Shown: positions 4,811-21,899 of the stretch, piece by piece
Layout: the number at the start of each line of letters is the position of its first letter
Position numbering within the stretch: the stretch's first letter is position 1
IMG/VR virus record: IMGVR_UViG_3300001718_000007
Coordinates: 2,539-28,955 of that record
Strand: one strand, 5' to 3'
DNA length: 26,417 nucleotides
Origin: a virus
Made by a program: the position numbers and the translations under genes
The notes under the pieces: model-generated
Told to the model about the DNA's origin: nothing
Seen by the model: only the letters and a program-made list of their open reading frames with translations
Databases searched by the model: none

Positions 4811-5290
4811 CTAATTTATTTTTTTAATTAAGTTTTGTTGTAATGCAAATTCTTCAAATCCTGCATAAGTGTCAAAAGAAACATTATCTACAATGCTCTC
4901 TATATTTTTTGTGTTTTCTAAGTCTGGAAATACATTTATAAAAATACAATCCTCTAAAACATATACAATTCTTTTAGTTCCTGCTGGAGATGTTCCCCAC
5001 GCAGGTGCTGTTATTTCTTTATTACCGGTTGGACTTCCCATTAAAAGTTTACCTTTCATTAAAAACCAAGTGTGTTTGTATTTATGTATTTTTCCAATTA
5101 ATATATTTCCTTTTTTAGAAAACATTTCTCTTGTTAATAGCCCTTCGGCAAAAGTGTGTTTTAAAGGAGCTATTTCTTCGCTATCTGTGCCAACATACAC
5201 TCCTTCTAAGTTTAAGCTTGCAATCTGGTTTTGCAATTGTTCTAATTGTAAAGTAAAGTCTTTTTCTAATTTAATTAAATTTGATTCCAT
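4811..5290 (-). CDS. Cupin-like (RmlC-type beta-barrel) phage structural protein, 159 aa
   Basis: Residues 4-27 form a short coiled coil (repeating Leu and Gln). Residues about 50-122 fit a small phage family I recall as cupin/RmlC-like: REMF at 54-57, KKGNILIGKIHKYKH at 59-73, FLMKGKLLMG at 76-85, TAPAW at 94-98, SPAGTKRIVY at 101-110 and EDCIFINVF at 113-121. The two His residues at 69 and 73 sit where metal-binding His residues would fall in a cupin, but the Glu/His of the second cupin motif are not obvious, so the barrel may be purely structural. The ATG overlaps the stop of the 465-residue tail gene by one base (TAATG), which suggests translational coupling and a virion or tail-assembly role. 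The fold assignment is from memory of the motif pattern; its function in phages is not established. Confidence 0.75.
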   Translation of the reverse strand: MESNLIKLEKDFTLQLEQLQNQIASLNLEGVYVGTDSEEIAPLKHTFAEGLLTREMFSKKGNILIGKIHKYKHTWFLMKGKLLMGSPTGNKEITAPAWGTSPAGTKRIVYVLEDCIFINVFPDLENTKNIESIVDNVSFDTYAGFEEFALQQNLIKKIN

Positions 5291-6687
5291 TAATATCCAT
5301 TAAGTGGTTTATATTCTGAAGAAACTACAAACAATTCTTTTGCGTTTCCTACATCTGTAGAGGAGTCGGTCTTCATAGTCACCGTAGTAAAATATCCTTT
5401 TATTCCAGAAGTAGGTTGACCTAAGTTAGGATTTAAATTAATTATTACTTGACCTGGTGTTGATTCTGTTTTGTAAGTTCTTTTTAAAGCAGCAACATAT
5501 TTGTTTTCTTTAATATCAAATCCTGCGTGATAAATAGGAAATTGAGAAGCAGCTGTTCCTGTATTTGCTGGACTAGCTGAGTCATAAGATCCTTCTAAAT
5601 AGCTTAATACTTTTTCAGCTCTATCAGAGTAAGTTGAAGAACCTCCTGATCCTGGTATTTGATTTTGTACGCCCTGAAGATCACTGTTCATGTAACTTGC
5701 CTCCCACCCGTTTGATCCTTCGTAAGACAATGTTTGAAAAACTTTTTGGTTAGAAGCGCTTGGATTAAAAATAAAAGTTATATTAGAAGGAGTTACGGAA
5801 TTTCCGTAATAACTTCCTCTTTGAGCTATTTGCGCGTAGTGTTGCCATAGGCCACTTCCAGTACCGGTGCCTCCTGTTGAAAAGTAAGTGCTTTTTAAAC
5901 TAAAAGCAAATTCAGGTGTATAAGAATGAAAGCTAACCCATCCTTTAGCAGACTCATCGTAAACTAAAGTATAGCTTGCGCCAGGATTTTGAATAGAAAG
6001 CGTATAGTTTTTATTATGAATATCCCAACCACCAACAATTAAACTGTTTGAATTGTTTTGACCTAAAGTATCTCTAAACCAATCTTTCATGCCATAAGAC
6101 GATATTTCTGTAATACCATCTTGAGACAATCTTAATATTGCAGACCTATCTTTATCGGCAAAGTATTTTCTATAGCCATAAATAGCAAAGCTTTCAGGGT
6201 TTTGTGATATCCCATATTCCCCTGCGTATGCTTGAATTTGTCCAATAACTAAACTACCAGAAGTAGTCAATGCTCCCCCTTGTGCTGTGTATATTGCATC
6301 TTTATCTATTAAAGCTTTGCTTACTTTGCTTTCTTGAAATATAGTTAAATCAGTATTTTCAGCATATAGTTTTTGTATTCCCCCATGATCTGGATTTACA
6401 GCTTTAGTAATATCTTCGGCTACTGAAAAAACATTTGTTTGATTTACAGCTGTTCTTGAATTATATATGCCTGAATATATTATTGAGCTAGGTAACACTC
6501 TTTGGGAATCATCTTTTAAAGTTGTATAAGCCCTGGAGCCGTTTCCAACGCCTACATTATTAAAACCCCCTTTTATTCTAGCTTCTTCTAAAAACCAATC
6601 TTTAGAAAAATTAGCGGTTAAGTCGGTAAAGTCTGTCTTCTTTAACCAAAAAGAGTTATAATACTGTATTCCTAAAGTAGTTGCCAT
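5290..6687 (-). CDS. Tail / stabilization-like structural protein, 465 aa
   Basis: This is a Gly/Ser/Tyr/Asn-rich beta protein without a signal peptide or membrane span. Several stretches fit tail proteins of marine Bacteroidota phages and crAss-like muzzle proteins as I recall them: KGWVSFHSYTPEFAFSL at 248-264, GLWQHY at 279-284, TFIFNPS at 304-310 followed by QTLSYEGS at 318-325, and near the C-terminus MKTDSSTDVGNAKELFVVSSEY at about 438-459 (read in two parts). The repeated strand-turn pattern in residues 150-330 would suit a beta-propeller or receptor-binding barrel. It follows the 1622-residue tail protein by a short gap and overlaps the cupin-like gene by one base, so all three are probably made together. 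It may be the distal half of a muzzle complex whose N-terminal half is the 1622-residue protein. Tail assignment is likely; the exact position in the particle is not known. Confidence 0.8.
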   Translation of the reverse strand: MATTLGIQYYNSFWLKKTDFTDLTANFSKDWFLEEARIKGGFNNVGVGNGSRAYTTLKDDSQRVLPSSIIYSGIYNSRTAVNQTNVFSVAEDITKAVNPDHGGIQKLYAENTDLTIFQESKVSKALIDKDAIYTAQGGALTTSGSLVIGQIQAYAGEYGISQNPESFAIYGYRKYFADKDRSAILRLSQDGITEISSYGMKDWFRDTLGQNNSNSLIVGGWDIHNKNYTLSIQNPGASYTLVYDESAKGWVSFHSYTPEFAFSLKSTYFSTGGTGTGSGLWQHYAQIAQRGSYYGNSVTPSNITFIFNPSASNQKVFQTLSYEGSNGWEASYMNSDLQGVQNQIPGSGGSSTYSDRAEKVLSYLEGSYDSASPANTGTAASQFPIYHAGFDIKENKYVAALKRTYKTESTPGQVIINLNPNLGQPTSGIKGYFTTVTMKTDSSTDVGNAKELFVVSSEYKPLNGY

Positions 6688-6713
6688 ATATAATTATTAC
6701 TTATATTTTTTAT

Positions 6714-9700
6714 TTATTCCGGATAATAAGGGAAGTTAGTCCCGTCAGTTCCAAGGGGAAAAGGAGGAACAGTGTAATCAACTTTAATTAACGTGTTAGC
6801 TCCAGACGGCGATATAGGTAAGCCCCCTAGGTCTTGAGCATGCGCCAGAAATATAGATGCTCCTTGAGAAGTTCCGGTACCAGCCTGCAAAGTGTTTCTT
6901 ACAATACCTATACAAACATTAGCCATTAGACACCCAGTGTAGTCGTATGGTAATCCGGTTGCAGTTGTCCCTGACTGCCCAGGAACAACCCCTTCTAACA
7001 TCTCTTCTTGAGTTGGATTAAATGCTTCTAAAGTTGCTAAAATTACAAATTTTTGTGATTGAGCTGCGCCAGCGTAGTCTTGAATATTAATAATATTTGA
7101 AGTTGGTATACTTGTTGTTACAAGTCCGTACCCTTCTATTTTCCCAGTCTGGCCTCCCGTAGTATCAGCAGCATAAGCTATTGCTGCAATTGTTCTTGTT
7201 TGAGCTGTCCAGTTTGCTACAAGACCCCTTTTTGAGGTATTAACAAAATGCCCTTGCGGCGTCACATTTGGAGCGGTATAATTCCATGGTAAATAGTTAA
7301 AGGCTATGCCTGTGGATAACGGCGGACCTTGATCACCTCCTACAAGTTTTGCGTTAACATTTTGCAAATTTGGATTACTGTTAGGTACATCACTTCCTGA
7401 TAATTGTTGATTTGAATAAGGAGCCCAGGTTACATATCCATCATATCTTTTTATTCCAACTGTAAATTGTATTACAGCAGTATTTACTAAGCCTCCAGGA
7501 TCGGTGCATTTAACCGTGATTTCGTAGAAAGCAGGCAACATAGGAGCAGCGCCGCTAACCCTGGTTATAGTAGCACCAGTATTAGGGTTTTGATATGCTA
7601 TTTGAAATTCTGTTGTAACATCTTGAGGCACACTTTCAAAATTTACGGTTGCAAATTCAATTTCTGTAGTATTCATTCCAGTGGACCTTCTATTTAAATC
7701 CGCGCTTCCGTTAACACTTTTTAAGCCTGAGATTATAACCGTTTGATCCGCTGTAACTCCTGGTATAATAAACAATTGAGTAGGGTCAGACGGCGCGCTA
7801 AAAGAATTAGGTAAAAATGAAGGATCTTTATTAACTAAAACAGTATCCGTATTTAAACTAACAGTTTCACCGGTGGCAGTTGTAAATTCCATTACAAATA
7901 AATAATAATCTAAAAGAGCTGAATCAGTTAAATAAGCTTGAGGTAAAAGAATTTGAATATAATAAGATCCGTTAGAATTTTGAATTAAATCAAACTCTCC
8001 TGTTGCCCCTATAGCGTTACTTCGATTTGTAGTTGTATTTAAATTGCCTTGTATATCTTTTGAATACACGGCAGTTAATACACCTGTGGTTGTTGCAATA
8101 TCGCCGCTAAAATTAGTAGGAAAAAAACTGCTTGATCCTGGAGTACCTGCGGCATCATCTTCTTCAATAGCAAAAATAATATCCGAAAGCCCTGTTGGCA
8201 AAGATGTGCTTGAGCTACTTAAAACTAAAGTGTTTAAATCTGATATTAAACCTGTAGTAGAAGTTTCCCAATATATATCTAAAACAGATTCAACGGGAGC
8301 CGTTTCATAAACAGCCAAGTACATGGAGGTCGGATATGTTCTAGTAGGATCAACAACCCAATCTTCCTCAGCCTCTCCTATAGGATTAACCGTGTTTATT
8401 CTAGCTACTAAAGGGTTTACATTTGTAAATTTTCTAATTGAACCTGTAGGAGCAGGAGGTGTCGCACTGTCAAATGTTGTTTCTTGATATTCCACAGCAA
8501 ACCCAGGATATAAACAAAGCCCGTTTAAATAACCTATATCTGTAGTAGTATAATCTGCAAGTCCAAACAATTCTTTTTGAGAAGCAATTAAAGTAACTGT
8601 GTCAGGTGTTGGTGATGGAAAATATTGCTGATTTCCATCAGATAAATTATTCACCCTACCATACAATCTAACACTACTATTAAATTCTGTTTGCACAGGG
8701 CCTACTTCTTTTAAATCCCTAGGTATTTTATTAATATTATCATTTATTAAAACTATATGGCCCGTTTTATTGACTTCATCGCTGTTTTGATTTATAGGAT
8801 AGCCATTAACCACGCCAGGAAGATACACGTTATAATAATCTTGTTGTTTTTGTTGAACAACTATACGATAAGAGTAATAGCCTAATTCATTAATATCATA
8901 AGAAGCGCCTGCCTTAGAGCCAGAAACTGTTATAACAGCTGTGGAATATTCAAACAAATAACTATCAGCTATTCTGTCTTGGGTAGTCAAAACTACTACC
9001 CCTCCTGTTTCGGTGGAAGTTGATATTATATTAATATAATCTTCGTAATAGCCTCTTAATTTTTTATTAGAATTAAAAAAGGTAGTGTAAGTTGTTAACC
9101 AGTTAACAAATAATTCTTGCAATCGATACTCGTAAGTTCCGTTTGCATTTATTTGCGTAAATCTCCAGTATTTAGCGGGAGCCTGGAAAGGGCTGATTGG
9201 CACAGGAAATTCAGTAATCCATGTATTGCTAATTGCATATGCTCCCGGATAGCCAGATATGCCTTGAAAGTTAGCAGCTTCAGGAATAACATCGTTAAAA
9301 GTTATTCTTAATTGATCTCCATCCCAAGGTCCTATTTGAGGAAGAAAATTTGGAGATTTATAGTTATGAAACATATTTGCTCCTTTAACATACTGACCAA
9401 ATTCGTCTAGTAAATTATCGTACTTCGAAAGTATCACGTCTGATTGCCTACCCCACTTGTCAGCCAAAACAATACCTACTTTATAATTTCTATTTTGTTT
9501 TAAATTATGATTTGGATATTCAATAGCTTCTTGAGTATTTTTTTCAGCAGCAAACACTTGATAATCTAAATTATTTAAACTTGCATGATTTGCTACAAAA
9601 TTTCCATACATAACTCTATTACCTGAAGTCTCTTGCGCTAAAGCTCGTAGAGGTACTTCATCATAAACTCTTACCACTTCTCTTTCGGGAAGAGTTTTAT

Positions 9701-11582
9701 AAGGCTTTGATGATTCATATGTATATTGATAAACCGGTATAGGTGAGTAGTCCCATGAAAAAGTATCTCCATCTGTATATCCAACACTTCCTGCAATTGT
9801 TATTTCATATTGAGGAGGTGTTGTTGTAGGATCAAAATCCACTGCCAACACTAAAACAGGAGAAGGCAAAGCAACTCCATTTATTTCTTCTAAATAATAC
9901 CCCGGTATAATTCCGTTTAAAAGATCTGTTGTAACAATTTTTGTACCACTAACCGTACCTATAGCCGTTGTTGTTGTGGTTCTATCTGTATAAAGAGTGT
10001 CAAATGTATTATCAACAGGTATAGTCTCTATAACTTTATATACTACCCCATCTGATTCTTTAACAATAATGTCAATTTCAATTATTTTATAATTTTTGTG
10101 AGGGCTTCCTGAAGGCAATTCAATATTTAAAACTAAATTATTAATATTGTTTTGCATGAATTCCACAATAGTTGATCTAAATGCAGCGTCTTCATCACCT
10201 TCATAAAAATAGCCATTTTGTTCTGGAACAAAAGCGGCCTGTGTAAAAGGGGCTATTAACGAATATTCATTATCATCAAATTTAAACCTATAACTAAATG
10301 TTAAAAACTTATCTTTCATATAAGCTGGATCCCCATTCCACCCGTCATAATCTGCATCTCTTATACATCTTATATAATATCCAGGAGTTCCTGAGCTTGG
10401 GATGGCTGTTTGTGTTACATCATCACTGCTTCCTTGCATTCTAACATATTCACTTGGGTTACCTATTTTAGCTGCCCACCAAGCAACTGCGTTATCTCCT
10501 TGAGGTTGAACTACTCCTGGTGCTGATTCACCGCCCCCGATACCAAAAAAATCAGTTCCACCTGTTACGCCAACACGGTATCCCCCAGGCCTTGCGTTAA
10601 AAAACTTATTAGTATCTGTGTTACCTTGAGTACCTGCCCCCCAAGTTCCAGGGCTATAAAAAGTAGGCCAATCAACTATTGAGCTAGAATTAGGCGTTTT
10701 TAACTTTAAAGCCGCTCCTGTTGCACCTCCAACTCCTAATAACAAATTTGTCCAATCATCCTTATCAGCAACCTTATATCCTGTAGGCGCTAATTTTGGA
10801 TGAGTAGCCGCAGCCTCGTTATATATTTTTCCATAAACTTCTGCATTAGCGGGATTAAAGTCATAATAACACCAAGCAGGACCTGTTGCTGCATTCCAAT
10901 CAGATAAAGATTGTGCTTCTTCAATTGGGGTGCCGTCATTTAATCTATCTACACTAAGGTTTACAGTTGTCCATTGTAGTAAATCAATAAGCACAGTAGG
11001 CAAATCAGCGGCATTAGTCATGGTAGAAGGATGTAAACCATTTTGTGTAACAGTTAAATCCAATAAGCTAGGAGCAATATACGGAGAAAATTTTGCTACT
11101 GAAATAGTTTGTTCATTTACATAATAACTTGGATCAGCAATAGCTGAAAGCACATTTAGTTTTCTAGGCTGATTATTATTGTCTGTCCAAAATAATAGAT
11201 CTTCTATTAAGGTTATACCATAAACCTTACTGGTTTTGTTAAAATTTAAATAAGCGCCTTTTGTAAGTATATCTAATGCTCCAGATCCATTGTTATATTT
11301 TATAATAAAATGACTTGTATTATTTGTTAAAAACAAATAAATATCATTTTTATCTTGATCAGCAAAAGCACCAATTGAAACTAATCCCGACACGCCAAGA
11401 CGTGTTTCAAAGCTAAAAACTTGTACATTACCAACTACGTTTTGTACAGTACCTACATCTGAGCTTTCAGATTGACTAATTTGAACATTTAGAGCATCTC
11501 TATATTCTCCATTAGGAATTAGACGTGCATCTAAATCCTTATTCATTTTAGATTTTATAAAAGAATTTGTAACTTTAGCCAT
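6714..11582 (-). CDS. Giant tail protein (muzzle/stabilization-like), 1622 aa, with inserted FISUMP domain and Ig/cadherin-like C-terminal region
   Basis: The N-terminus (NSFIKSKMNKDLDARLIPNG at 6-25, then EYRDALNVQIS and SDVGTVQN) fits the start of long tail stabilization/muzzle proteins of marine and crAss-like phages. The conserved block is interrupted after about residue 180 and resumes at about 420 with KDKFLTFSYRFKFDDNEYSL (424-443). Between them, residues about 205-409 match a FISUMP domain (Fibrobacter succinogenes major paralogous domain): RLNDGTPI, WCYYDFNPANAEVYGKIYN, LAPTGYKVADKDDWTNLL, FNARPGGYR, AWWAA, and terminal GYYIRCIRD. Towards the C-terminus, a stretch ending FYEITVKCTDPGGLVNTAVI looks like a cadherin/Ig-type sandwich. 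The gene lies between a ring-type connector protein (6-nt gap) and the 465-residue tail protein. The likely role is the tail tube or muzzle, with the FISUMP fold exposed for adhesion. Tail role strong; FISUMP assignment strong by motif; exact particle position inferred. Confidence 0.85.
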   Translation of the reverse strand: MAKVTNSFIKSKMNKDLDARLIPNGEYRDALNVQISQSESSDVGTVQNVVGNVQVFSFETRLGVSGLVSIGAFADQDKNDIYLFLTNNTSHFIIKYNNGSGALDILTKGAYLNFNKTSKVYGITLIEDLLFWTDNNNQPRKLNVLSAIADPSYYVNEQTISVAKFSPYIAPSLLDLTVTQNGLHPSTMTNAADLPTVLIDLLQWTTVNLSVDRLNDGTPIEEAQSLSDWNAATGPAWCYYDFNPANAEVYGKIYNEAAATHPKLAPTGYKVADKDDWTNLLLGVGGATGAALKLKTPNSSSIVDWPTFYSPGTWGAGTQGNTDTNKFFNARPGGYRVGVTGGTDFFGIGGGESAPGVVQPQGDNAVAWWAAKIGNPSEYVRMQGSSDDVTQTAIPSSGTPGYYIRCIRDADYDGWNGDPAYMKDKFLTFSYRFKFDDNEYSLIAPFTQAAFVPEQNGYFYEGDEDAAFRSTIVEFMQNNINNLVLNIELPSGSPHKNYKIIEIDIIVKESDGVVYKVIETIPVDNTFDTLYTDRTTTTTAIGTVSGTKIVTTDLLNGIIPGYYLEEINGVALPSPVLVLAVDFDPTTTPPQYEITIAGSVGYTDGDTFSWDYSPIPVYQYTYESSKPYKTLPEREVVRVYDEVPLRALAQETSGNRVMYGNFVANHASLNNLDYQVFAAEKNTQEAIEYPNHNLKQNRNYKVGIVLADKWGRQSDVILSKYDNLLDEFGQYVKGANMFHNYKSPNFLPQIGPWDGDQLRITFNDVIPEAANFQGISGYPGAYAISNTWITEFPVPISPFQAPAKYWRFTQINANGTYEYRLQELFVNWLTTYTTFFNSNKKLRGYYEDYINIISTSTETGGVVVLTTQDRIADSYLFEYSTAVITVSGSKAGASYDINELGYYSYRIVVQQKQQDYYNVYLPGVVNGYPINQNSDEVNKTGHIVLINDNINKIPRDLKEVGPVQTEFNSSVRLYGRVNNLSDGNQQYFPSPTPDTVTLIASQKELFGLADYTTTDIGYLNGLCLYPGFAVEYQETTFDSATPPAPTGSIRKFTNVNPLVARINTVNPIGEAEEDWVVDPTRTYPTSMYLAVYETAPVESVLDIYWETSTTGLISDLNTLVLSSSSTSLPTGLSDIIFAIEEDDAAGTPGSSSFFPTNFSGDIATTTGVLTAVYSKDIQGNLNTTTNRSNAIGATGEFDLIQNSNGSYYIQILLPQAYLTDSALLDYYLFVMEFTTATGETVSLNTDTVLVNKDPSFLPNSFSAPSDPTQLFIIPGVTADQTVIISGLKSVNGSADLNRRSTGMNTTEIEFATVNFESVPQDVTTEFQIAYQNPNTGATITRVSGAAPMLPAFYEITVKCTDPGGLVNTAVIQFTVGIKRYDGYVTWAPYSNQQLSGSDVPNSNPNLQNVNAKLVGGDQGPPLSTGIAFNYLPWNYTAPNVTPQGHFVNTSKRGLVANWTAQTRTIAAIAYAADTTGGQTGKIEGYGLVTTSIPTSNIINIQDYAGAAQSQKFVILATLEAFNPTQEEMLEGVVPGQSGTTATGLPYDYTGCLMANVCIGIVRNTLQAGTGTSQGASIFLAHAQDLGGLPISPSGANTLIKVDYTVPPFPLGTDGTNFPYYPE

Positions 11583-11588
11583 TTAATT

Positions 11589-12824
11589 TTAGTGTTTAAT
11601 CCATTTAGATTTACCTCTCATTACTTGAACAATTTCATCAAGTTTTATATTAGATAATCTTATTTTGGCATTTCTTAATTTAGCATTTTTTTCTCTTCTA
11701 AATCTTTGAACTACATACTCAGGCTGCTGAGCTCTTGTGGATATAATAGAATACATTATAGCTGAGTATAACGCATCTTCTGCTAACTTAGGTACTTTAG
11801 TATCCAGGTCATAAGCAAGCCCGTCTGAGATGTATTCTAGCACAATAAGCTTTCCGGCTAAATTGCTAGAAAAAGTCATTTTACCTTCTCTGTAGTCTAT
11901 ACCAAACCACCCGTTTGTTTGAGCATACTGAGGATCCATGCCATATAATTGGCCTGCTGCTGCAGATCCGTAAGGCCCAAAGCCCCATCCGCTATATCCC
12001 CACTCAGCCCAATCTTGAGTCCATTCTGAATTTATTAAGCTAGTATTATTTTCGCCCCATCTTTCAGTTGTAATAGAAGTTCCTTCTGTATTTTCACCAA
12101 AATTATCCTGAGTTGGCACACCGTTTTTATCTTGCAAAGGGGTTTCTGTAGGATTAATCGTTAAGTTATTAGCAGGATATATAGGTCTTTTAACACCTAG
12201 TTTATCTATCCAAGAAACTTTAACGTAATTTACGTAGTCTTGTGGTATAATAACACTTAAGCTGGGAGGTATATTTAATTCCGCAGATTTAATACTTTTT
12301 AAAGTGTCATAGCTAAATTCCTGTAAATTTCTTTTAGCAAAAAATAATACATCAGATTTTTTAGCTGTTTGAATTATTTTACCATCGCCAACATATCCAA
12401 CCATAAAGTTGTCTATTGCATCACCTAGTTTTATATATTCGTAATCACCGTAACCTTCTTCTACAACCTCTCCAAATGCTTTTTCTGGATAAGTAGCGCC
12501 ATAATTTCCACCAGTTAAGGTTTTTAATTGAACAACTACAATCGTATTTGCGGGCAATGGGTCGGTGATAGTAATTACATTATTTTCTACTGCATATGCT
12601 TGAATATATTCACTAAAACTTCCGGGAAGTCCAGTTGAACTTGTATATATTTTAAAGTTATTTAAAGCATAACTAGTAGCTAAAGGATCCCAAGAATCAG
12701 CGCCTCCTGAAACTATAGAAGTGTCAAATGTTGTTGGAAATGTCTCATTAGCTGAAGCGGTTATAGATAAAAACTGCTGTGCTCCTTGGTAATATTGTTG
12801 ATTTGTTTGGGTTATTAATGCCAT
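11589..12824 (-). CDS. Ring-type head-tail connector protein, 411 aa
   Basis: The protein has an N-terminal beta-rich part, with strands ending in NNVITITDPLPANTIVVVQL, that would suit a tail- or fibre-facing domain. The second half resembles connector proteins of marine and crAss-like phages: GYGDYEYIKLGDAIDNFMVG, SYDTLKSIKSAELNIPPSL, then DYVNYVKVSWID, a Trp/Gly/Tyr-rich loop around residues 265-300, and a basic helical C-terminus ending in GKSKWIKH. The repeated pattern 'helix, PPSL, I-P-x-D-Y-V' fits proteins that stack below the portal. It follows the 257-residue ring protein by only 3 nt and precedes the giant tail protein by 6 nt, so the three are probably translated from one transcript. 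In Crassvirales, several ring proteins join portal to muzzle; I infer this is one. I have no structural evidence for its order in the stack. Confidence 0.78.
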   Translation of the reverse strand: MALITQTNQQYYQGAQQFLSITASANETFPTTFDTSIVSGGADSWDPLATSYALNNFKIYTSSTGLPGSFSEYIQAYAVENNVITITDPLPANTIVVVQLKTLTGGNYGATYPEKAFGEVVEEGYGDYEYIKLGDAIDNFMVGYVGDGKIIQTAKKSDVLFFAKRNLQEFSYDTLKSIKSAELNIPPSLSVIIPQDYVNYVKVSWIDKLGVKRPIYPANNLTINPTETPLQDKNGVPTQDNFGENTEGTSITTERWGENNTSLINSEWTQDWAEWGYSGWGFGPYGSAAAGQLYGMDPQYAQTNGWFGIDYREGKMTFSSNLAGKLIVLEYISDGLAYDLDTKVPKLAEDALYSAIMYSIISTRAQQPEYVVQRFRREKNAKLRNAKIRLSNIKLDEIVQVMRGKSKWIKH

Positions 12825-12827
12825 TTA

Positions 12828-13601
12828 TTAGCTTTTTAGATTTACCTTGTCTTGCTGTATTTCGCCCATAGCTGCTTGTATAACATTACCGTTATTAATA
12901 ATAAGTCCACAGTATTTAAGTACGTTTAGTATAATATTAGATTGTTCTGATATGTCTAATTCAAAATTTAAACTTCCGTTTACATTAGTTGCAGTACGAA
13001 GAGAGTTGTTGTAAGAAAATTGTCCAACAGATCCTATTGAATAACCCCAGTAAACATTAGAAGGAGATGTAAGTATATTGCAAAGCAATGTATCAGGTTT
13101 TGGAAAAACCTTAAGAGAAGATGTTTTATCTTGAGTTACAAGATTTGTTAGGCTAGAAGCATAAAAAAGCGGATAACTTTTTGTAGGCTGCGTTAATTTA
13201 GATCTTGTTATTAAATTGTAATCTTTTACAGTAGTTAATTCAGCTACTGATTCTAACGTAGGGTTGTTAACGTAAGTAGCTATTACGTCCCCTATTTTAT
13301 AAACGTTTTCAGTAGTAGTCCAAGCTTTATCTGCTAAGCTATAAGAAAACAATACTTCTTTTTGAAAAGGATATAACTTATACTCTATATTTTTTACATG
13401 ATTAAAAAACTCCGAATCATTCTGTGTATTTATTTGGTCTTTCCGTATTAGCTGATTTGCATCAGAAAAATACTCTTGAAAAATTTCCATTTGAACTTGA
13501 GTAGCTATTTGGTTAAATTCCTCAGGCGTTATATATCCTCTTTGTTCTTTGTTTAACAAGTACAAAACTGTTTCATATACTGTATTTACGTTTACCGCCA
13601 T
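12828..13601 (-). CDS. Small ring-type connector protein, 257 aa
   Basis: The N-terminus (NTVYETVLYLLNKEQRGYIT at 6-25, then PEEFNQIATQVQMEIFQEYF) fits a connector family that I recall next to the capsid genes of marine Bacteroidota and crAss-like phages, where it starts with the same 'NTVY..VL.L.NKEQRGYITP.EFN..A...Q' pattern. The N-terminal 60 residues are helical; the middle and C-terminal parts are beta-rich, and the last 30 residues are helical again (SNIILNVLKYCGLIINNGNV). It lies between the 269-residue protein and the 411-residue connector, with a stable RNA hairpin in its 5' leader. The likely role is an adaptor ring below the portal. The ATG is taken at 13601, preceded by an A-rich stretch and no Shine-Dalgarno motif. 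Function is from family memory and position. Confidence 0.75.
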   Translation of the reverse strand: MAVNVNTVYETVLYLLNKEQRGYITPEEFNQIATQVQMEIFQEYFSDANQLIRKDQINTQNDSEFFNHVKNIEYKLYPFQKEVLFSYSLADKAWTTTENVYKIGDVIATYVNNPTLESVAELTTVKDYNLITRSKLTQPTKSYPLFYASSLTNLVTQDKTSSLKVFPKPDTLLCNILTSPSNVYWGYSIGSVGQFSYNNSLRTATNVNGSLNFELDISEQSNIILNVLKYCGLIINNGNVIQAAMGEIQQDKVNLKS

Positions 13602-14564: not shown

Positions 14565-16031
14565 TTATGCTCCTTTGAATAATACAAAGTTGTTAGCAGC
14601 TTGTACACATAAACATCTTTCAGACAAGAAGTTAACTTGCATTGCATCAAGATCAGATGTGAAAGCGCCTCCAGCAGAACCAGTTAACCAAGACTTCATA
14701 CGACGATCATCAGCTTGTGAAGCTCTGTATCGAACGTGTAAGAATGGTCGACGAATGTTAGTTCCTAAGATTTGATCGTATACTGTAGAAGTTCCAGCAG
14801 GTACTAATACACCTTCAATTCCTTGAATAGTATAATCTAGTCCACCACGAGTAGAAGCATCGTTTAAGTATTTCCAATCAGTCTTATAGAAATCGTAAGA
14901 TCCTCTACGGAAACCGCTAAAACCTAAGTTTAATGCCATTTCTTCTGAGTTTTCAAACAATCCAAAAGCAGTTCCTCCGGCTTGACCAGCTGAAATAGCT
15001 CCTAGCATATCATCAAAATCTAAAGCTGTTTGGCGATTTAAGAAAAGCATGTTTTCTTCAATAGCACCTTGAGTATCTAAATTTTTAAGAATGGCATCAA
15101 AATCGTCAAGACCTGCAGCCGCTGTGAATCCAGTTTGTACATTTCCACGATCTTCAATAGCTTCAAATAAACCTTGAGTACCAGAAAGAAGTGCATTGTG
15201 TCCTGCAACACCGTCACCTGCAACTACTTTTTTACCTTCTACTACAGACATTTCTAAGTAATCACCAAAACGTAAACGAGTTTCTGATTCGGCTTTTAAA
15301 TACCATAAGAATCCAGATGTTCCGTCTTCAGTTGCAACTTCAACCCATCCAATTTGAGCCATATCAGATCCAGATACTACGTATTGGTTTCTAATGATGA
15401 TTGGTGAATTTGAAAATTGCGTAAAAGAAGGTTCAATACTTGCGTAGTTGTCTCCTACTAAAGTAGATCCTTTTTGATATTCAGATCCGTATACAAATAT
15501 CTTAACCTTAGCAGCAGCTGTAAAAGGTGCTGGATTACCAGCTCCGTTGGCAGTTACTAAATCAGCAGATCCGTAAGTAGCAACTGAAACTGCGGCAGTT
15601 CCAGGTCCAGCTGGTGTAACTTTAACTATAACTTTAGCTTCTTTACCTGTTACAGGATCTATAACAACTAAAGTTTGATTTGCAGATAATACATTTTGTA
15701 CAAAATTAGGTCCTACAGTAGCAGAAAGATTATTAATAGTTAATGTTGTTCCGTTAGTTACAGTTACATCATCATATGCAACGTGTAATCTATTTTGTTC
15801 CGACCAAATTACTTGATCAGATGTCATTGGCATTTCAGCTCCTACCATGCGTAAGAATCCAGATAATGTTCTGTTTCCATAACGCTCTACTTCTTGTTCG
15901 TAGATTTCAGGTAAATACTGCTTTGCAAATGTTCCCCCGCCTGTATCAGAGTCGAACGACAAGTAATTGTCGCTAAGCGTTTGTTGCGCTTGGGATGGTT
16001 TAATTGTACCAAATTGTGGTGTAATTGACAT
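14565..16031 (-). CDS. Major capsid protein, 488 aa
   Basis: The diagnostic block lies at residues 37-83: KQYLPEIYEQEVERYGNRTL, then SGFLRMVGAEMPMTSDQVIW and SEQNRL. I recall this pattern from the major capsid proteins of marine and crAss-related tailed phages, which adopt the HK97 fold. Residues 85-200 are a Thr/Ala/Val/Gly-rich beta region that may be an inserted surface domain; residues about 280-400 hold helices and a conserved-looking RGGLDYTIQGIEGVLVPAG stretch; the C-terminus (TSDLDAMQVNFLSERCLCVQ) is typical of the family. Codons are somewhat richer in C and G than in neighbouring genes, as expected for the most expressed phage protein. It follows the scaffold-like gene by 15 nt and is followed by a hairpin that may boost its mRNA. 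A folding partner could be the GroES-like protein encoded upstream. High confidence in the role; the fold is by family analogy. Confidence 0.9.
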   Translation of the reverse strand: MSITPQFGTIKPSQAQQTLSDNYLSFDSDTGGGTFAKQYLPEIYEQEVERYGNRTLSGFLRMVGAEMPMTSDQVIWSEQNRLHVAYDDVTVTNGTTLTINNLSATVGPNFVQNVLSANQTLVVIDPVTGKEAKVIVKVTPAGPGTAAVSVATYGSADLVTANGAGNPAPFTAAAKVKIFVYGSEYQKGSTLVGDNYASIEPSFTQFSNSPIIIRNQYVVSGSDMAQIGWVEVATEDGTSGFLWYLKAESETRLRFGDYLEMSVVEGKKVVAGDGVAGHNALLSGTQGLFEAIEDRGNVQTGFTAAAGLDDFDAILKNLDTQGAIEENMLFLNRQTALDFDDMLGAISAGQAGGTAFGLFENSEEMALNLGFSGFRRGSYDFYKTDWKYLNDASTRGGLDYTIQGIEGVLVPAGTSTVYDQILGTNIRRPFLHVRYRASQADDRRMKSWLTGSAGGAFTSDLDAMQVNFLSERCLCVQAANNFVLFKGA

Positions 16032-16046
16032 AGTCTTTTAATTTTT

Positions 16047-17246
16047 TTAGTTAAATTTTTTTGTTTTTACTCTTAATTTTGAAGAATCAGTGCCGGTGAT
16101 TGCTCTAACTTTAAATCCATTAACAAAAACATCCTGAGGCGCTTGCCTTGGGGTCCCTGTAGAAGGATTTTTAGATTTTGCAACTACATCTTTAATAGCG
16201 TCAGCTTTTCCTTGTTCGTAGAAATGATTAGCTATTTGATCTGAATGCGTAGCGGCGTACATAGCTTTGTGATAACCTTTAGGATCTTCGACACTGCCAT
16301 CTTTAGCTAGGAACTTCCCAACTACATTGCCTATGTCCGATTGCTTATCTGCAACTTCACTAGGGTTTGAAACATTATACTTAAACCTTTTATCTCCTAA
16401 TTTAAATTCGAAACCTTCGAAGTCATTAGAAAATAAGTCTTTTGTTTTTTGTTTAAAACTTTCGTGATGTTCTGTGGCTGTTTTCTGCCCTTCATTATAT
16501 CGGTTGAAAAAGTCTACTGCTTTTTGTTGATCTTTGTTTACGCTTGGCCTCAACTTGATTTCTTCGTAATATTTTTTCTTAGTATCTTCTAAAAAGCTTT
16601 TAGCTTTTGCAACCTCTTCTTTAAACGCAATTTTTTTCTTGCGTATTTCTTTTGGCTCATCTAAATCTTCATCATAAGAATAATCTTCCATAATTAAAGA
16701 TATATCTTCTGCATCTAAATGAGGCTTTGTTTTTTTATAAAACTCTGAAATTAATATATTATTATCTATCTTAGAGTAATCAGTGTTAAGTCTAGCGTAC
16801 TCTTCAATAGTCCCGCCAGTATCTTCCATAAAACTAATAAGCTTTTCAATATTTTCAGGCAATTCTTTTCCTAAAACTTTTTCATCTCGTAAAGCTTCTT
16901 TTACTTCTTTTACTGTTTCTTTAACTTCGTCTTCTGTTATTTCTTGAATAACATTTTTAACGGCCCCTTCGTCTCCTTGTCCCACTGTTGACAATTCCAC
17001 TTTTGGCTCTTCCCCTGTTTCTTTAACTGGCTCGCTTTCGCGTAACACAGCGCTCTCTGAGCTTTGCTCTTGAATGGCATTTTCTTCGTCTTTTTTAATT
17101 ACTACTTTAGTAACTTCAGGCACTACTGCACCTTGTACATTAGGAGCCGATAAATCAACCTTTATAGGTTCATTTGTAGGCTTCATAAATTTTTTTGGTT
17201 TGGATTTAAGTTTAAAATCCCCTTCTTGTTTTAACGTTTCTGACAT
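16047..17246 (-). CDS. Scaffold-like capsid assembly protein, 399 aa
   Basis: The protein is highly charged and rich in Lys and Glu. Residues 1-110 are low-complexity, acidic and probably disordered. Residues about 110-260 form long helices (TEDEVKETVKEVKEALRDEK; KKKIAFKEEVAKAKSFLEDT) fit for coiled coil. The C-terminus is basic with the pattern DVFVNGFKVRAITG then DSSKLRVKTKKFN, which I recall from proteins encoded just before the capsid gene in marine phages. Position directly between portal and capsid genes, acidic coiled coil and a basic C-terminal end are the hallmarks of scaffolding proteins, whose C-terminus binds the capsid protein. No protease motif is visible, so a fused maturation protease is unlikely. 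It is preceded by a 33-nt A/T-only leader. Scaffold role is inferred from position and composition. Confidence 0.8.
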   Translation of the reverse strand: MSETLKQEGDFKLKSKPKKFMKPTNEPIKVDLSAPNVQGAVVPEVTKVVIKKDEENAIQEQSSESAVLRESEPVKETGEEPKVELSTVGQGDEGAVKNVIQEITEDEVKETVKEVKEALRDEKVLGKELPENIEKLISFMEDTGGTIEEYARLNTDYSKIDNNILISEFYKKTKPHLDAEDISLIMEDYSYDEDLDEPKEIRKKKIAFKEEVAKAKSFLEDTKKKYYEEIKLRPSVNKDQQKAVDFFNRYNEGQKTATEHHESFKQKTKDLFSNDFEGFEFKLGDKRFKYNVSNPSEVADKQSDIGNVVGKFLAKDGSVEDPKGYHKAMYAATHSDQIANHFYEQGKADAIKDVVAKSKNPSTGTPRQAPQDVFVNGFKVRAITGTDSSKLRVKTKKFN

Positions 17247-17268
17247 AATATAATATAATTAAATAATT
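17247..17268 (-). promoter_or_regulatory. A/T-only leader of the scaffold gene
   Basis: This 22-nt stretch ends at the ATG and agrees at 20 of 22 positions with the leader of the 269-residue gene. It has no G or C at all and no Shine-Dalgarno motif. A role in Bacteroidota-type initiation, which favours unstructured A/T-rich leaders, is possible. The match may also be partly a result of base composition. Confidence 0.3.
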
Positions 17269-17279
17269 AAATAATAATT

Positions 17280-19688
17280 TTACTTAGGATCAAATTGCTC
17301 TAATCCAAATCCACCCATAGTATCAAAACCAGCGGATTCAAAATCAACAGGCGGAGTGTTATTACTTCTTTGCTGTATCATTTTACTTTGTTGAGTAGCT
17401 TGTATTTTTGTTCTTTGATCTTTTCGATCTTCTATTTCTTGCTCTTTTGTAGTTTTAGCTTCTTGTTCTATTCCTGCTAATTGCATATTATAGCTAAACT
17501 CTTCAGCCATTAAAAGCTTTTTGAACATTACTTCTGATTCCATTTTTTGAATTTCAAATTGGACTTTAGCTTGCTCTATTTGTATTTTACTTTCTGTAAT
17601 AGCTTGTGTTTTTTGAACTTCAAATAGTGCTGCTTTTTCAGCGGTTTGTTGGCTAGCCTGAGCTTGTGCTTGTATATTAGCTTGCTTTTGGGCTTGTTCT
17701 TTTTCCTGCCTTTGATTTCTTTTAATCTTTAGCATTTGATTAGCTAATTTAAGATTTTTTATCTGACGTATATCTATGGCGTCAGTCAAATCAATTCCTC
17801 CCATTTTTAACGCTATCTGTATGTTTTGCTCAAGCTGGGCAGCCTCTTCTGTGTCAGGCTCTAATTCTAGGTATATACCAAAATCATGTAAATTTAAATT
17901 ACTAAGTTCCGATAAAGCCGCTACGTTTGATAAAGAAATTGTATTCTTTAAAGTTTCTGCTGTTAAAGGATAGCTTAATACATCTGCCATTTTTAAAGAA
18001 ACATTCTCACATGCTCTTAAAGCTAAAAACAAATTAGCATTTAAAACGTGCTTAGTGGCTATGTTGGAGGCATTCGCTGCCATTTTTTGCAAACCTACTA
18101 AAGCATCTTTATCTGGCAAGCTTCCGTCTCTTGCTTCATTAAGCCCCGTTACATCACGAATCATTTGTAAATAGTATTGATACGTTTGTATTAAGCTTTG
18201 TATTTTAGCACCTCCACTTGAGGTTGTTAATTCTTGAACAGGTATTTTACCTCTATTAAGTTCGCCGTCTTGAGTAAGTGATCTACCCACTATGGAACCT
18301 GTTTGAAAGTACATATTAAGTGCTTCTGCTGGATTGTAATTAGTTCCATTACCTAAATCAACTTCAGCTAAACCATCCATATCTAAAAATACCCCATCCG
18401 GAACAACTTTAGACAAGACTTGCTGTAGTTTTAAATGTGTTAATTGGATCATGTCAGCAAACCCCGTAATACGACTTACAATAGATTCTATTTTTCCTTT
18501 GTACATTTTAGGCGCACATATTGCATAGCTCATTTCAACTTTTGTAGTATCCGCAAAAGGACGAGACATATTTTCTGCAAGCTCCCATTTAAGCATAGTG
18601 TCAGTTCCTACAACTTTTGCTCCAGAATATAAAACTTCAATAGATCGTGATATTCTTTCAAAGTTATCATTTTCAGGTGGATTAAAAGTGTCTGGCTTTT
18701 CTAAAGCTTTTTGTAAACCTTGATCGGTTTGTTTTATTTTAAAAACTTGATTCATATAAGTTTTGTATTCAAAATACATAACTTGTACCGTGTTTTCATC
18801 ATAATTACCCCAACCCATTATATTCTGTCTATTGCCGGGCATTTTTTGAATTCTTTCAAGTTCTTGCTCTGAAATATTTGGAAATTCTTTTTTAAGCTCA
18901 GGTATTGTTATAGACTTTACTTCTCCTATATAATATATATCTTCAAAATTAGGATCTTCAGTGTATGAATAAACCATATAAGCAGGATCAACATAATCAA
19001 TTGTTATTCCCTCAGCTGTATTAAAATCTGTTTTAACTGCACCAATACCTAAAACTACTAAATCTTCTACAATTCTTTTATTTGTTAAATGATATCTATT
19101 TGAAGCTAATACATTACTAATAGCTTCTTCATTTGCTATTTCTATATTTTGCTTGTAATTAAGCTGCATGTATATTTCCAGCTCTTCTGTAGAAGTTGGC
19201 ATATTTTCAACGGGTCCAAGTGCAGAAACATCAATCCCTAAAGATTGTTGAGTCATTGCTATTTGCTTTTGACTGTGCATATCTTGCAAAAGAGCCTCTG
19301 TATATTGTGTTCTTTTTCTTATTGAAAACGGATCCTGAGCGTAAGCTTTTATGTCATATTCTTTTTGAGCAATGCCATTAGTAACTATATCTACAAATTT
19401 TGCTATTACAGGAACAGGTTTCCAATCTAAATTTAAATATGATAAATCTCCATTTATGGCAAGTTCATCTTTATACTTTTGTATAGGCTGTTCCCCTCTA
19501 GCATATAATCTTAATAAATGAAAATTATTTGAATTAGATAAATATCTGTTTCCATTGCTACGCCCTTGTTCAAACCACTCTTGCTCAATAGCTCTTGAGA
19601 CTTGCAGTCCATACTGGATAGATGCCTTCTCCTCGTCGCTAACGACTTGGCTAGGAAAATTGCTATTAGTATCTGTGTATATGTTCAT
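17280..19688 (-). CDS. Portal protein, 802 aa
   Basis: The size and position immediately after the large terminase identify this as the portal, the dodecameric ring at the packaging vertex. The N-terminal half holds the clip/stem/wing-type mix of helices and strands with YLNLDWKPVPVIAKFVDIVT at 84-103, a block common to large Bacteroidota-phage portals, and a later GAVKTDFNTAEGITIDYVDP motif. Residues about 500-560 (a QTYQYYLQMIRDVTGLNEAR helix followed by DALVGLQKMAANASN) fit the crown-proximal helices. From about 651 to 765 the protein turns into a Gln/Lys/Glu/Ala-rich coiled coil that should form the barrel inside the head, followed by a flexible end. The gene starts next to the terminase stop with no gap, so the two are coupled. 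The length (about 800 residues) is within the range I recall for crAss-like portals. High confidence. Confidence 0.88.
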   Translation of the reverse strand: MNIYTDTNSNFPSQVVSDEEKASIQYGLQVSRAIEQEWFEQGRSNGNRYLSNSNNFHLLRLYARGEQPIQKYKDELAINGDLSYLNLDWKPVPVIAKFVDIVTNGIAQKEYDIKAYAQDPFSIRKRTQYTEALLQDMHSQKQIAMTQQSLGIDVSALGPVENMPTSTEELEIYMQLNYKQNIEIANEEAISNVLASNRYHLTNKRIVEDLVVLGIGAVKTDFNTAEGITIDYVDPAYMVYSYTEDPNFEDIYYIGEVKSITIPELKKEFPNISEQELERIQKMPGNRQNIMGWGNYDENTVQVMYFEYKTYMNQVFKIKQTDQGLQKALEKPDTFNPPENDNFERISRSIEVLYSGAKVVGTDTMLKWELAENMSRPFADTTKVEMSYAICAPKMYKGKIESIVSRITGFADMIQLTHLKLQQVLSKVVPDGVFLDMDGLAEVDLGNGTNYNPAEALNMYFQTGSIVGRSLTQDGELNRGKIPVQELTTSSGGAKIQSLIQTYQYYLQMIRDVTGLNEARDGSLPDKDALVGLQKMAANASNIATKHVLNANLFLALRACENVSLKMADVLSYPLTAETLKNTISLSNVAALSELSNLNLHDFGIYLELEPDTEEAAQLEQNIQIALKMGGIDLTDAIDIRQIKNLKLANQMLKIKRNQRQEKEQAQKQANIQAQAQASQQTAEKAALFEVQKTQAITESKIQIEQAKVQFEIQKMESEVMFKKLLMAEEFSYNMQLAGIEQEAKTTKEQEIEDRKDQRTKIQATQQSKMIQQRSNNTPPVDFESAGFDTMGGFGLEQFDPK

Positions 19689-21899
19689 TTATTTATTTAT
19701 TTTTGATACAAATCCTTCGTTATCATATTTTTTAAATCCTAAATTGTAAACAACTTTGTTTACAGGAGAAGACGGAGCGTATAAGTTTTTATTGCAAGCC
19801 ATTATTGCTAAACCGCTGCTTATGGAAGCATCATGTTTTGTTCTATTGTTTATATTAAATTTAGACCAATCATCTAATGTTCTTTGAAAATAAACATCTC
19901 CAAAGCCTGTTTCGGTAATTCCTACAAAAGTTTCTATATAAGTCTCTATAGCAGATGCGTGAGCTTGCTTTATGTCTTCGCTTGAGTTAGGTATTCCACC
20001 CAACTCTCTTTCTGTAATAGAAAGTTTATTATATTTTTTATCAGGTCTGTTCATTGAGTAACCTCTGTAGCCTCTTCTTTTAAAATGGTACAAAAGCCTA
20101 GGTTTATTGTTTTCACACAAAATAGGCATACCATAAAACACACAGGCCATTAATACGTCTTCAAAAAATATTTCCGCGGTTTGTGGTCTAGCTATATATT
20201 CTAAAAAAAATCTATTAGGGGGCACGTCCTCCATACTAAATTTAGTTAATCCATGCAAAGCTCCGTTAGAACCTCTGCTGCCAACAGTTCCTGATATGTC
20301 GTAACTGTCACAACCAAATGCTCCACAATGTTCATTGCCTGGATATTTTATTCCATTTTTTAAAAAAACTCTATTTTGCAAATTAAAAGGCGGTACCCAT
20401 GAAATCATAAACCTTCCGCTTTTATTAGGAACAAATATAACTTTAGAATCTTTAATCCCGTTCTCCCATTGAAAACTACCTTGTGAAACAGCGTTTGTGT
20501 TTTTAAGGTCCTCGTTGTAATCAATTTGTTGATAAATCTTAGTTAAATTAAATAAGGATTCTTTTGATTCATCTCTAAAAGCATGCTTAGTTGTTCTTGG
20601 AAATTGCCTGTAAAATTCATTTAAAGCATCTTGATCGCTTTTTAAACCTTCTACTTCGTTTTGCCAATACTCAATAACTCCTTGATCTATTATTTCTTTA
20701 TTAGGTCCTTTGGTATCTTTTTTTGGCTTATCGAATACAGGTAGCCCATAAGAATCAATGTATCCTTCGTAGTTCCATTCCATAGGTATGAACAAAGAAT
20801 AGAGTCCTGAGCGAGTCTGTCCATTGGCATTTCTTTCAGTAACATCTGAATCATTATAAAGCTTTTTAAAATTTGCCCCTCCCTTATCTAAAGAATTAGA
20901 AGTGGAACCCATCATACATTTTCCTATAATCCTAGACCCTAATCTGAGGGTGGTTTTCGTAACCCTCCAGTTGTTGAGGATGTTCGTCGGCCTTTCCCAT
21001 TTGCCCGATTCATCGTGGACGAGGAGTTTAAGCTTCTCACCGTCGTAGGAGTTGTCACCGGTGTTCTTCCAGTCAATGGTGGTGTCCAAACCGGTAATTT
21101 CTTTAAGGGTTTCATTGGAATCAAGTTTTCGACGGGTAAATTTGGAGGCTGGGACTCTATAGGCAAGTTCTGTCTTCGGCCTGTCCATACCGTCCTGGAT
21201 CGGTTTGAAGAAAAACGGGTAGTTAACGGAAATTGGTACCACCTTATCTGTGAACATCTTCTTAGCATCGGGACCAGATTTGGACAATATTCCGAACCGT
21301 GAATCCGAGGATATTGTAGCAAGGTTGACCGATTCAGCTGAGGACATAAATGAAAAGCCTGATCGACGGTTTTTAAGATAACACATTCCATAAGACCTGG
21401 TATCGGCTTTACAAGCTTCCCAGAAAATATAGAATAATCTATTTGATTCCCTAAAGTCTGGCTGCCCGACGTCAATTTTACTCCACTGCAAGTACATGTA
21501 ATTAGTACCAGTAATATAAGTAGGCTTGCCTTTATTAATAAACCAAAAGCCTTTTTCACGCCTTGTAAATTCTTTGTCAATATAATCATACCATTTTTCT
21601 TTAAAGTCTATTGGATATTCTTCCCAATCAAAAACAGATTTTATTTTTTTTAAAACCTTAGGATATTCAGTATATTTCCAAGTATCTGATTCAAATTGAA
21701 TTACATCATTTTCTTCTGGTAAAGCTATTTTAATATTTTGTATTTCATAAATATCTCCTATTTTTCCAGTCTTGCTTATAACAATAATATCATGTTCCTT
21801 GTTATAACCGTATTCCCACTTATTGTACCTATTGTTTTTTTTTAAAACAGCGGGCTTAATATGGTTTTTTAAAACCTTATATAAAGTTTGCTTATACAT
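19689..21899 (-). CDS. terL: Terminase large subunit (packaging ATPase-nuclease), 736 aa
   Basis: The protein drives ATP-dependent DNA packaging and cuts the concatemer. Visible motifs: a variant Walker A at 178-184 (RRSGFSF, Arg-rich with no classic GKT), Walker B KLLVHDE at 291-297 with catalytic Glu297, coupling motif MMGSTSN at 329-335, and the nuclease domain with FGCDSYD at 528-534 holding the first metal-binding Asp531 or Asp534, followed by acidic residues near 576-581 (EIFFED). The variant Walker A is of a type I recall in Bacteroidota phage terminases. The ATG overlaps the stop of the 91-residue gene by one base (TAATG), and the portal gene starts directly after the stop. Residues about 165-322 are encoded by DNA with much higher G+C and different codon choice from both flanks, yet the frame and all motifs are intact; see the separate patch entry. 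High confidence. Confidence 0.92.
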   Translation of the reverse strand: MYKQTLYKVLKNHIKPAVLKKNNRYNKWEYGYNKEHDIIVISKTGKIGDIYEIQNIKIALPEENDVIQFESDTWKYTEYPKVLKKIKSVFDWEEYPIDFKEKWYDYIDKEFTRREKGFWFINKGKPTYITGTNYMYLQWSKIDVGQPDFRESNRLFYIFWEACKADTRSYGMCYLKNRRSGFSFMSSAESVNLATISSDSRFGILSKSGPDAKKMFTDKVVPISVNYPFFFKPIQDGMDRPKTELAYRVPASKFTRRKLDSNETLKEITGLDTTIDWKNTGDNSYDGEKLKLLVHDESGKWERPTNILNNWRVTKTTLRLGSRIIGKCMMGSTSNSLDKGGANFKKLYNDSDVTERNANGQTRSGLYSLFIPMEWNYEGYIDSYGLPVFDKPKKDTKGPNKEIIDQGVIEYWQNEVEGLKSDQDALNEFYRQFPRTTKHAFRDESKESLFNLTKIYQQIDYNEDLKNTNAVSQGSFQWENGIKDSKVIFVPNKSGRFMISWVPPFNLQNRVFLKNGIKYPGNEHCGAFGCDSYDISGTVGSRGSNGALHGLTKFSMEDVPPNRFFLEYIARPQTAEIFFEDVLMACVFYGMPILCENNKPRLLYHFKRRGYRGYSMNRPDKKYNKLSITERELGGIPNSSEDIKQAHASAIETYIETFVGITETGFGDVYFQRTLDDWSKFNINNRTKHDASISSGLAIMACNKNLYAPSSPVNKVVYNLGFKKYDNEGFVSKINK
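20936..21405 (-). other. In-frame high-G+C mosaic patch covering the terminase ATPase core
   Basis: Seven 60-nt lines from 20941 to 21360 contain 30, 32, 25, 29, 28, 26 and 26 G or C, 196 of 420 (47%). A flanking line (20821-20880) has 19 of 60. On the coding strand the patch prefers CTC, GTC, ACC, AAC, ATC and GAC, whereas flanking terminase codons end mostly in A or T. The edges fall near the conserved Walker A block (about residue 178) and just before the coupling motif (about residue 325). The reading frame is preserved. The likely explanations are homologous replacement from a higher-G+C relative, or an assembly chimera joined at conserved motifs. Confidence 0.85.

What the first reader, a model, noticed from the sequence alone, without database searches (positions are those of the whole stretch)
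10356..10970. FISUMP domain inserted into the conserved N-terminal part of the giant tail protein
Residues about 205-409 of the 1622-residue tail protein follow the FISUMP pattern (NDGTPI, PAWCYY, YGKIYN, LAPTGYKV..DDW, AWWAA, GYYIRCIRD), while the flanks read as one continuous tail-protein block. A Bacteroidota surface-protein module within a tail muzzle-like protein suggests a transferred adhesion or recognition domain, possibly with a C-type-lectin-like fold.
Basis: partly seen in the sequence, partly recalled or inferred. Interest (0 to 1): 0.65.

Follow-up and report, generated by a model that had tools for sequence, protein, structure and literature searches.

The report
Lectin-like domain in phage tail-tip protein
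A virus that probably infects Bacteroidota bacteria carries, inside the large protein that plugs the end of its tail, a surface domain of a family mostly found in Bacteroidota; it was gained as one unit and kept by a whole group of related viruses, probably as an extra hand for holding the host cell.

Summary
Residues 202-408 of the 1622-aa muzzle protein match Pfam Fib_succ_major (FISUMP), E=1.4e-16, over the cut-off; TIGR02145 falls short. The domain is a discrete insert: phi38:1 has 13 residues at that site and 19 IMG/VR relatives carry other sequence. On a tree built without the insert, 25 FISUMP-bearing muzzles form one clade (100/97): one gain, then vertical retention. The site probably lies in a loop of Ig-like domain 1 of the muzzle. 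A confident model (pLDDT 86) has C-type-lectin-like domains as nearest solved folds, none significant. A distant muzzle (L099) captured FISUMP at another site, and a relative without it carries FISUMP at the end of a tail-fibre-like protein. No reverse transcriptase in 77 records, so retroelement hypermutation is unsupported. Best explanation: a captured lectin-like binding domain displayed near the tail tip. Domain identity is near certain; its binding role is inferred.

The parts
6714..11582 (-). muzzle (tail-tip gatekeeper) protein, N-terminal and central part, 1622 aa
   Evidence: phrog_14478 virion structural protein E=1e-51; syntenic with phi38:1 gp97; hhalign of the family to crAss001 gp44, 97.0% probability, E=1.2e-10 with the slot excised
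10347..10997 (-). FISUMP (Fib_succ_major) domain, residues 196-412 as modelled; HMM match 202-408
   Evidence: PF09603 E=1.4e-16 in the whole protein, 2.5e-18 for the domain alone; AlphaFold2 pLDDT 85.8, pTM 0.86
10998..11048 (-). entry linker TQNGLHPSTMTNAADLP (residues 179-195); P-[SG]-T-M-[ST] conserved in the FISUMP-bearing muzzles aligned
   Evidence: alignments
11049..11582 (-). N-terminal flank, residues 1-178 (ring-joining arm and first propeller blades by homology to gp44)
   Evidence: domain plan from PMC10172136
9963..10355 (-). C-terminal flank, residues 410-540 (rest of IG1 and onward; motif KFLTFSYRFKFDDNEYSLIAPFTQ)
   Evidence: 88% aa identity to L010 and L003 against 61-62% in FISUMP
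10881..10910 (-). fast-changing loop of FISUMP, residues 225-234, before the invariant Cys strand
   Evidence: 7 of the 19 differences between L002 and L010 in residues 1-760; 2-aa length change between L003 and L004
10401..10415 (-). second fast-changing loop of FISUMP, residues 390-394, before the last strands
   Evidence: 3 of the 19 differences between L002 and L010
9735..9962 (-). second variable beta-rich segment, residues 541-616, absent in e.g. L011
   Evidence: L011: query 527 to 617 corresponds to target 505 to 514
5290..6687 (-). C-terminal part of the muzzle as a separate ORF, 465 aa
   Evidence: PF25729 crAss_MUZ_C E=1e-10; phrog_14478 positions 920-1234, E=3.5e-44
4811..5290 (-). 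short tail-fibre protein
   Evidence: phrog_12032 short tail fiber protein E=2e-24
11589..13601 (-). two virion proteins in the ring-protein position (411 and 257 aa)
   Evidence: phrog_13977 and phrog_14543 virion structural proteins; same order as phi38:1
14565..21899 (-). virion structural protein in the capsid-protein position, a further gene, portal protein, terminase large subunit
   Evidence: phrog_13704, phrog_6547, phrog_6681; order as in phi38:1

Best explanation
An ancestor of this clade of phi38:1/crAss-like phages gained a complete FISUMP domain in a loop of Ig-like domain 1 (IG1) of its muzzle protein, and the domain has been inherited since. It folds on its own into a probably C-type-lectin-like domain, is displayed in about six copies around the tail tip, and most likely binds a surface glycan or surface protein of a Bacteroidota host, adding avidity or a second contact when the tail tip reaches the outer membrane. 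Shown: the domain, its site, presence and absence, single gain on the sampled tree, a confident model. Inferred: exposure, six copies (from the gp44 hexamer), ligand binding, host group.
For: PF09603 match. Site occupied in 25 muzzles that form one clade on a tree of flanks only, 100/97 support, one change in 98% of bootstraps; unoccupied in phi38:1. The FISUMP domains of these muzzles are also one clade in the domain tree, SH-aLRT 95. Site maps into IG1 (gp44 163-292, PMC10172136) by alignment. Self-contained confident model; nearest solved folds are C-type-lectin domains and Lcl-CTD, an adhesin head (PMC11162425). FISUMP lies at the C-terminal end of tail proteins in other phages (L210, L106) and is a variable target domain in Bacteroides phages (PMC8143477). 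The domain is less conserved than its flanks, 61-62% against 74-88%, and gathers amino-acid changes between close relatives (binomial p=0.007, 0.05, 0.0007, 0.05 in four comparisons, neither corrected nor independent).
Against: No ligand is known for any FISUMP domain in the papers found. The same site holds non-FISUMP beta-rich segments in relatives, so a spacer role is possible. Other muzzle regions (761-900, 1121-1622) vary as much. In two of the close pairs synonymous changes are enriched too, which points to recombination rather than selection alone. IG1 homology to gp44 is not significant when tested without the N-terminal anchor. The 140-560 model that would show the domain in context was poor, pLDDT 53.
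Confidence: 0.6

Rival explanations
1. The insert is a structural spacer or brace: any compact beta-rich domain in the IG1 loop serves to widen or stiffen the muzzle, and FISUMP is one of several fillers without a ligand.
For: The site holds 85-100, 144 or 198-245 residues of other beta-rich sequence in 19 relatives; a similar segment sits at 541-616 in the window protein.
Against: FISUMP has been kept for a long time with its core residues (N, C, N, P invariant in 114 domains) while two loops change fast; the family is used at the ends of tail proteins.
Confidence: 0.22
2. The domain is a target of a diversity-generating retroelement, like FISUMP/DUF1566 domains of Bacteroides phages, so the tail tip is hypermutated.
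For: Fib_succ_major is an established DGR target (PMC4159848; PMC8143477); the fast-changing loop at 390-394 lies where variable repeats usually lie.
Against: No reverse transcriptase in the window's record or in 76 related records, three of the FISUMP-muzzle ones 61-68 kb long; changes between close relatives are not confined to adenines; no change in FISUMP between window and L001. The records may be incomplete.
Confidence: 0.05
3. The domain works through its partners, for example in folding or assembly of the muzzle hexamer or in holding tail fibres, not in host contact.
For: Lcl-CTD, a possible fold relative, forms a trimer and may drive assembly of its protein (PMC11162425); the muzzle of this group is split in two ORFs, which could create new assembly needs.
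Against: Relatives with the same split and no FISUMP in the muzzle exist (L016-L036), so the split does not require it.
Confidence: 0.1

Closest known systems
Fib_succ_major / FISUMP domain (PF09603, TIGR02145), mostly in Bacteroidota and neighbouring phyla
   Same: Full-length match over the Pfam cut-off, with the WCYY and RCxRD elements and the invariant Cys
   Different: Inserted in the middle of a phage virion protein; below the TIGR02145 cut-off
Muzzle protein of crAss001 (gp44) and phi38:1 gp97
   Same: N-terminal homology, gene order, crAss_MUZ_C part
   Different: gp44 and gp97 are single chains without a FISUMP domain; the gp44 paper reports length variation in IG2 and the crass domain, not this insert
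DGR target proteins with DUF1566/Fib_succ_major in Bacteroides phages (Bacuni phages, PMC8143477)
   Same: Same domain family used by a Bacteroidota phage; described there as C-type-lectin type
   Different: Separate target genes with an RT cassette; here no RT was found and the carrier is the muzzle
BACON domains of the crAssphage tail protein (PMC6949934)
   Same: A Bacteroidota-type putative carbohydrate-binding domain in a protein of a crAss-like phage
   Different: Different domain family, as tandem repeats, in another protein
Legionella Lcl C-terminal domain (PF07603, PDB 8Q4E)
   Same: Among the nearest solved folds (rank 4, E=0.77) and a weak Pfam relation in 12 of 114 FISUMP domains
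   Different: Trimeric adhesin head on a collagen stalk; similarity to our model is not significant by itself

Membership tests
FISUMP domain (PF09603) | Score over the curated gathering cut-off across the model | tested here: met
   61.7 bits against 33.9; profile positions 6-187 of 187
FISUMP domain (TIGR02145) | Score over NCBI's curated cut-off | tested here: not met
   30.3 bits against 41.65; filed under PF09603 only, as a divergent member
crAss-like / phi38:1-like muzzle protein | Homology of the N-terminal region to gp44 and the conserved C-terminal domain | tested here: met
   hhalign E=1.2e-10; PF25729 in the adjoining ORF E=1e-10; PF25731 crAss_MUZ hits relatives L023 and L031, though not P0001 itself
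crAss-like / phi38:1-like muzzle protein | Muzzle as one polypeptide | tested here: not met
   Split into two ORFs in the window and in every relative of this group with both parts read; a variation in gene structure, homology of both parts stands
C-type-lectin-like fold | Significant structural match to solved C-type-lectin domains | tested here: inconclusive
   9 of the top 10 PDB hits are C-type-lectin domains or Lcl-CTD, but best E=0.21 and TM 0.13
C-type lectin (calcium-dependent sugar binding) | Calcium/sugar-binding activity | not testable with these tools
   needs purified protein
DGR target | RT gene and adenine-specific variable repeat | tested here: not met
   0 of 77 records with PF00078, records incomplete; changes not adenine-specific

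The most novel reading that the evidence does not exclude
The muzzle itself is a receptor-binding protein in this clade: ligand binding by six lectin-like domains on IG1, next to the propeller that holds the gate, is coupled to gate opening, so that host recognition and ejection are joined in one molecule instead of being passed on from fibres.
Probability: 0.18. Interest if true: 0.72.

Novelty: new variant of a known kind. Interest (0 to 1): 0.45.

Why it matters
How crAss-like phages recognise the cell once the tail tip arrives, and what opens the muzzle gate, is open; the crAss001 paper only proposes that exposed loops of the crass domain touch the cell. Here is a defined, self-folding domain at one site, present in one clade and absent in its sisters, with a second capture elsewhere in the same protein family. 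That makes the question testable: express the domain, find its ligand, delete it. It also shows that FISUMP, a little-studied Bacteroidota module, moves into phage virion proteins repeatedly.

Tried and rejected
(1) DGR: searched for RT in the window's record and 76 related records, none. (2) Recent transfer from GC content: FISUMP has 42.0% GC against a 5-95% range of 32.4-40.7% for other stretches of the gene, but GC3 (21.2%) is ordinary, so composition follows the amino acids. (3) Structure in context: the model of residues 140-560 was poor (pLDDT 52.7) and was not used. (4) Sequence search of the PDB with the FISUMP profile: no hit up to E=10; with the muzzle profile: none up to E=1. (5) IG1 segment alone against gp44: not significant (E=0.43-0.72), so the IG1 placement rests on the N-terminal anchor and motif. 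(6) PHROGs gave no FISUMP family for three of these domains; the PADLOC scan of both muzzle parts gave nothing.

Full report
What was checked. The window lies in a 28,955-base IMG/VR virus record. Its genes on the minus strand run terminase, portal, a further gene, a virion protein in the capsid position, a further gene, two virion proteins in the ring-protein position, muzzle, short tail fibre, the same order as in Cellulophaga phage phi38:1 up to the muzzle. The protein in question is the muzzle, 1622 aa, matching phrog_14478 at E=1e-51.

The FISUMP domain is real. Pfam PF09603 matches residues 202-408 with E=1.4e-16 and 61.7 bits, well over the cut-off. TIGR02145 gives 30.3 bits, under its cut-off. 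The domain alone scores 67.4 bits. Chance is not an issue.

It is an insert. A search with the whole muzzle gave 44 loci. Aligning anchors on both sides shows that residues about 178-412 are a slot with different contents. FISUMP fills it in the window, L001-L015, L022, L024 and L025; a family search over 36 records finds FISUMP in 20 of them, one of which (G018) has it in another protein. Other relatives have 85-100, 144 or 198-245 residues of other, beta-rich-looking sequence, and phi38:1 has 13. A tree of the flanks alone, slot left out, puts all 25 FISUMP-bearing muzzles in one clade with support 100/97, one change in 98% of bootstrap trees, against 15 for shuffled labels. With phi38:1 as the outside reference this is one gain. 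The phi38:1 branch is long, so the root is not certain, and the sample was drawn partly by searching with FISUMP itself, which affects how many members are seen but not that they group.

Domain history. In a tree of 114 FISUMP domains from phages and bacteria the muzzle domains are one clade (SH-aLRT 95), without a close bacterial sister. The bacterial relatives are nearly all Bacteroidota and neighbouring phyla, so that origin is likely, but the donor is not seen. The transfer is old: identities to the window's domain go down to 30% within the clade, and GC3 is ordinary.

A second capture. L099 encodes a more distant muzzle (phrog_14478 E=2.8e-27, crAss_MUZ_C E=1.5e-8) with FISUMP near its N-terminus, E=1.6e-40, at a point that corresponds by motif to residues about 58-65 of the window protein, and only a short stretch at the IG1 site. 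Its domain groups with other phage FISUMPs, not with those of the IG1 site. So this protein family took up FISUMP at least twice. In other phage contigs FISUMP sits at the C-terminal end of tail proteins (L106, phrog_5939; L210, phrog_13892, from the record whose muzzle lacks it) and once in mid-protein (L077, 525-706 of 1064). In deposited phage genomes it is rare: three tblastn queries found at most 4 of 50,697 records each.

Where it sits. The crAss001 muzzle is a hexamer with a ring-joining domain, a seven-bladed propeller, IG1 (residues 163-292) between blades 2 and 3, IG2 in blade 3 and the crass domain (PMC10172136). With the slot cut out, the family profile aligns to gp44 1-269 at E=1.2e-10, the junction falling near gp44 residues 180-187; a multiple alignment places it likewise between IEVSK and YAFTYY. 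The IG1 stretch alone gives no significant score, so this placement is probable, not proven.

Fold. With 114 sequences AlphaFold2 gives pLDDT 85.8 and pTM 0.86. Foldseek finds no significant PDB match; nine of the ten best are C-type-lectin domains of snake venoms and a tunicate, or Legionella Lcl-CTD, at E 0.21-1.0. Among viral models only proteins named for the same domain match well. Lcl-CTD was itself found similar to snake-venom C-type-lectin domains (PMC11162425), 12 of 114 FISUMP domains match Lcl_C, and Fib_succ_major and DUF1566 were reported as similar to each other and as DGR targets (PMC4159848, PMC8143477). Together this makes the fold likely.

Evolutionary behaviour. Against L010 and L003 the domain is 61-62% identical, the adjoining flanks 74-75% and 88%. 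L002 and L010 differ at 19 places in residues 1-760, 11 of them in FISUMP, ten of those in the loops 225-234 and 390-394. Amino-acid changes are enriched in FISUMP over the rest of the gene (p=0.007, 0.05, 0.0007, 0.05 in four overlapping comparisons), but in two of these silent changes are enriched as well, which suggests recombination. Other parts (761-900, 1121-1622) are as variable. The window and L001, 99.95% identical, do not differ in FISUMP.

Mechanism. The best reading is a captured binding domain displayed near the tail tip, six copies per virion if the hexamer holds, that touches the host surface. The rivals (spacer, assembly helper, DGR target) are weighed in their own section. Nothing here measures binding.

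Novelty. A BACON-domain protein in crAssphage (PMC6949934) and FISUMP as a DGR-varied target in Bacteroides phages (PMC8143477) are known; capture of Ig-like domains by phage proteins is also known (own knowledge). FISUMP inside a muzzle was not found in the papers searched (no paper held both 'FISUMP' and 'phage'; the passages read of the crAss001 paper do not mention it), though the library is partial. I rate it a new variant of a known kind.

Noticed in passing
5290-6714: The muzzle is split: the conserved C-terminal part (crAss_MUZ_C) is a separate ORF in another frame, starting 26 bases downstream, in the window and in every relative of this group where both parts were read, while phi38:1, crAss001 and L099 have one chain. 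How two chains complete one propeller is unexplained.
   Followed up: partly
9735-9962: Residues 541-616 are a second variable beta-rich segment, absent in L011 and others and similar in style to the non-FISUMP slot fillers.
   Followed up: partly
L210:1747-3849: A 701-aa tail-fibre-like protein with FISUMP near its C-terminus (35.3 bits, just over the Pfam cut-off) in the record of L018, whose muzzle lacks FISUMP.
   Followed up: yes
L077:4335-7526: FISUMP at 525-706 inside a 1064-aa protein without any PHROG match; the carrier is unidentified.
   Followed up: no
L092, L095: Proteins with three to four tandem FISUMP domains in viral contigs, one also matching Lcl_C weakly.
   Followed up: no
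L025:10574-11434: The FISUMP of L025 has an extra stretch of about 80 residues before the last strand that resembles the beta-rich slot fillers: perhaps an insert within the insert.
   Followed up: no
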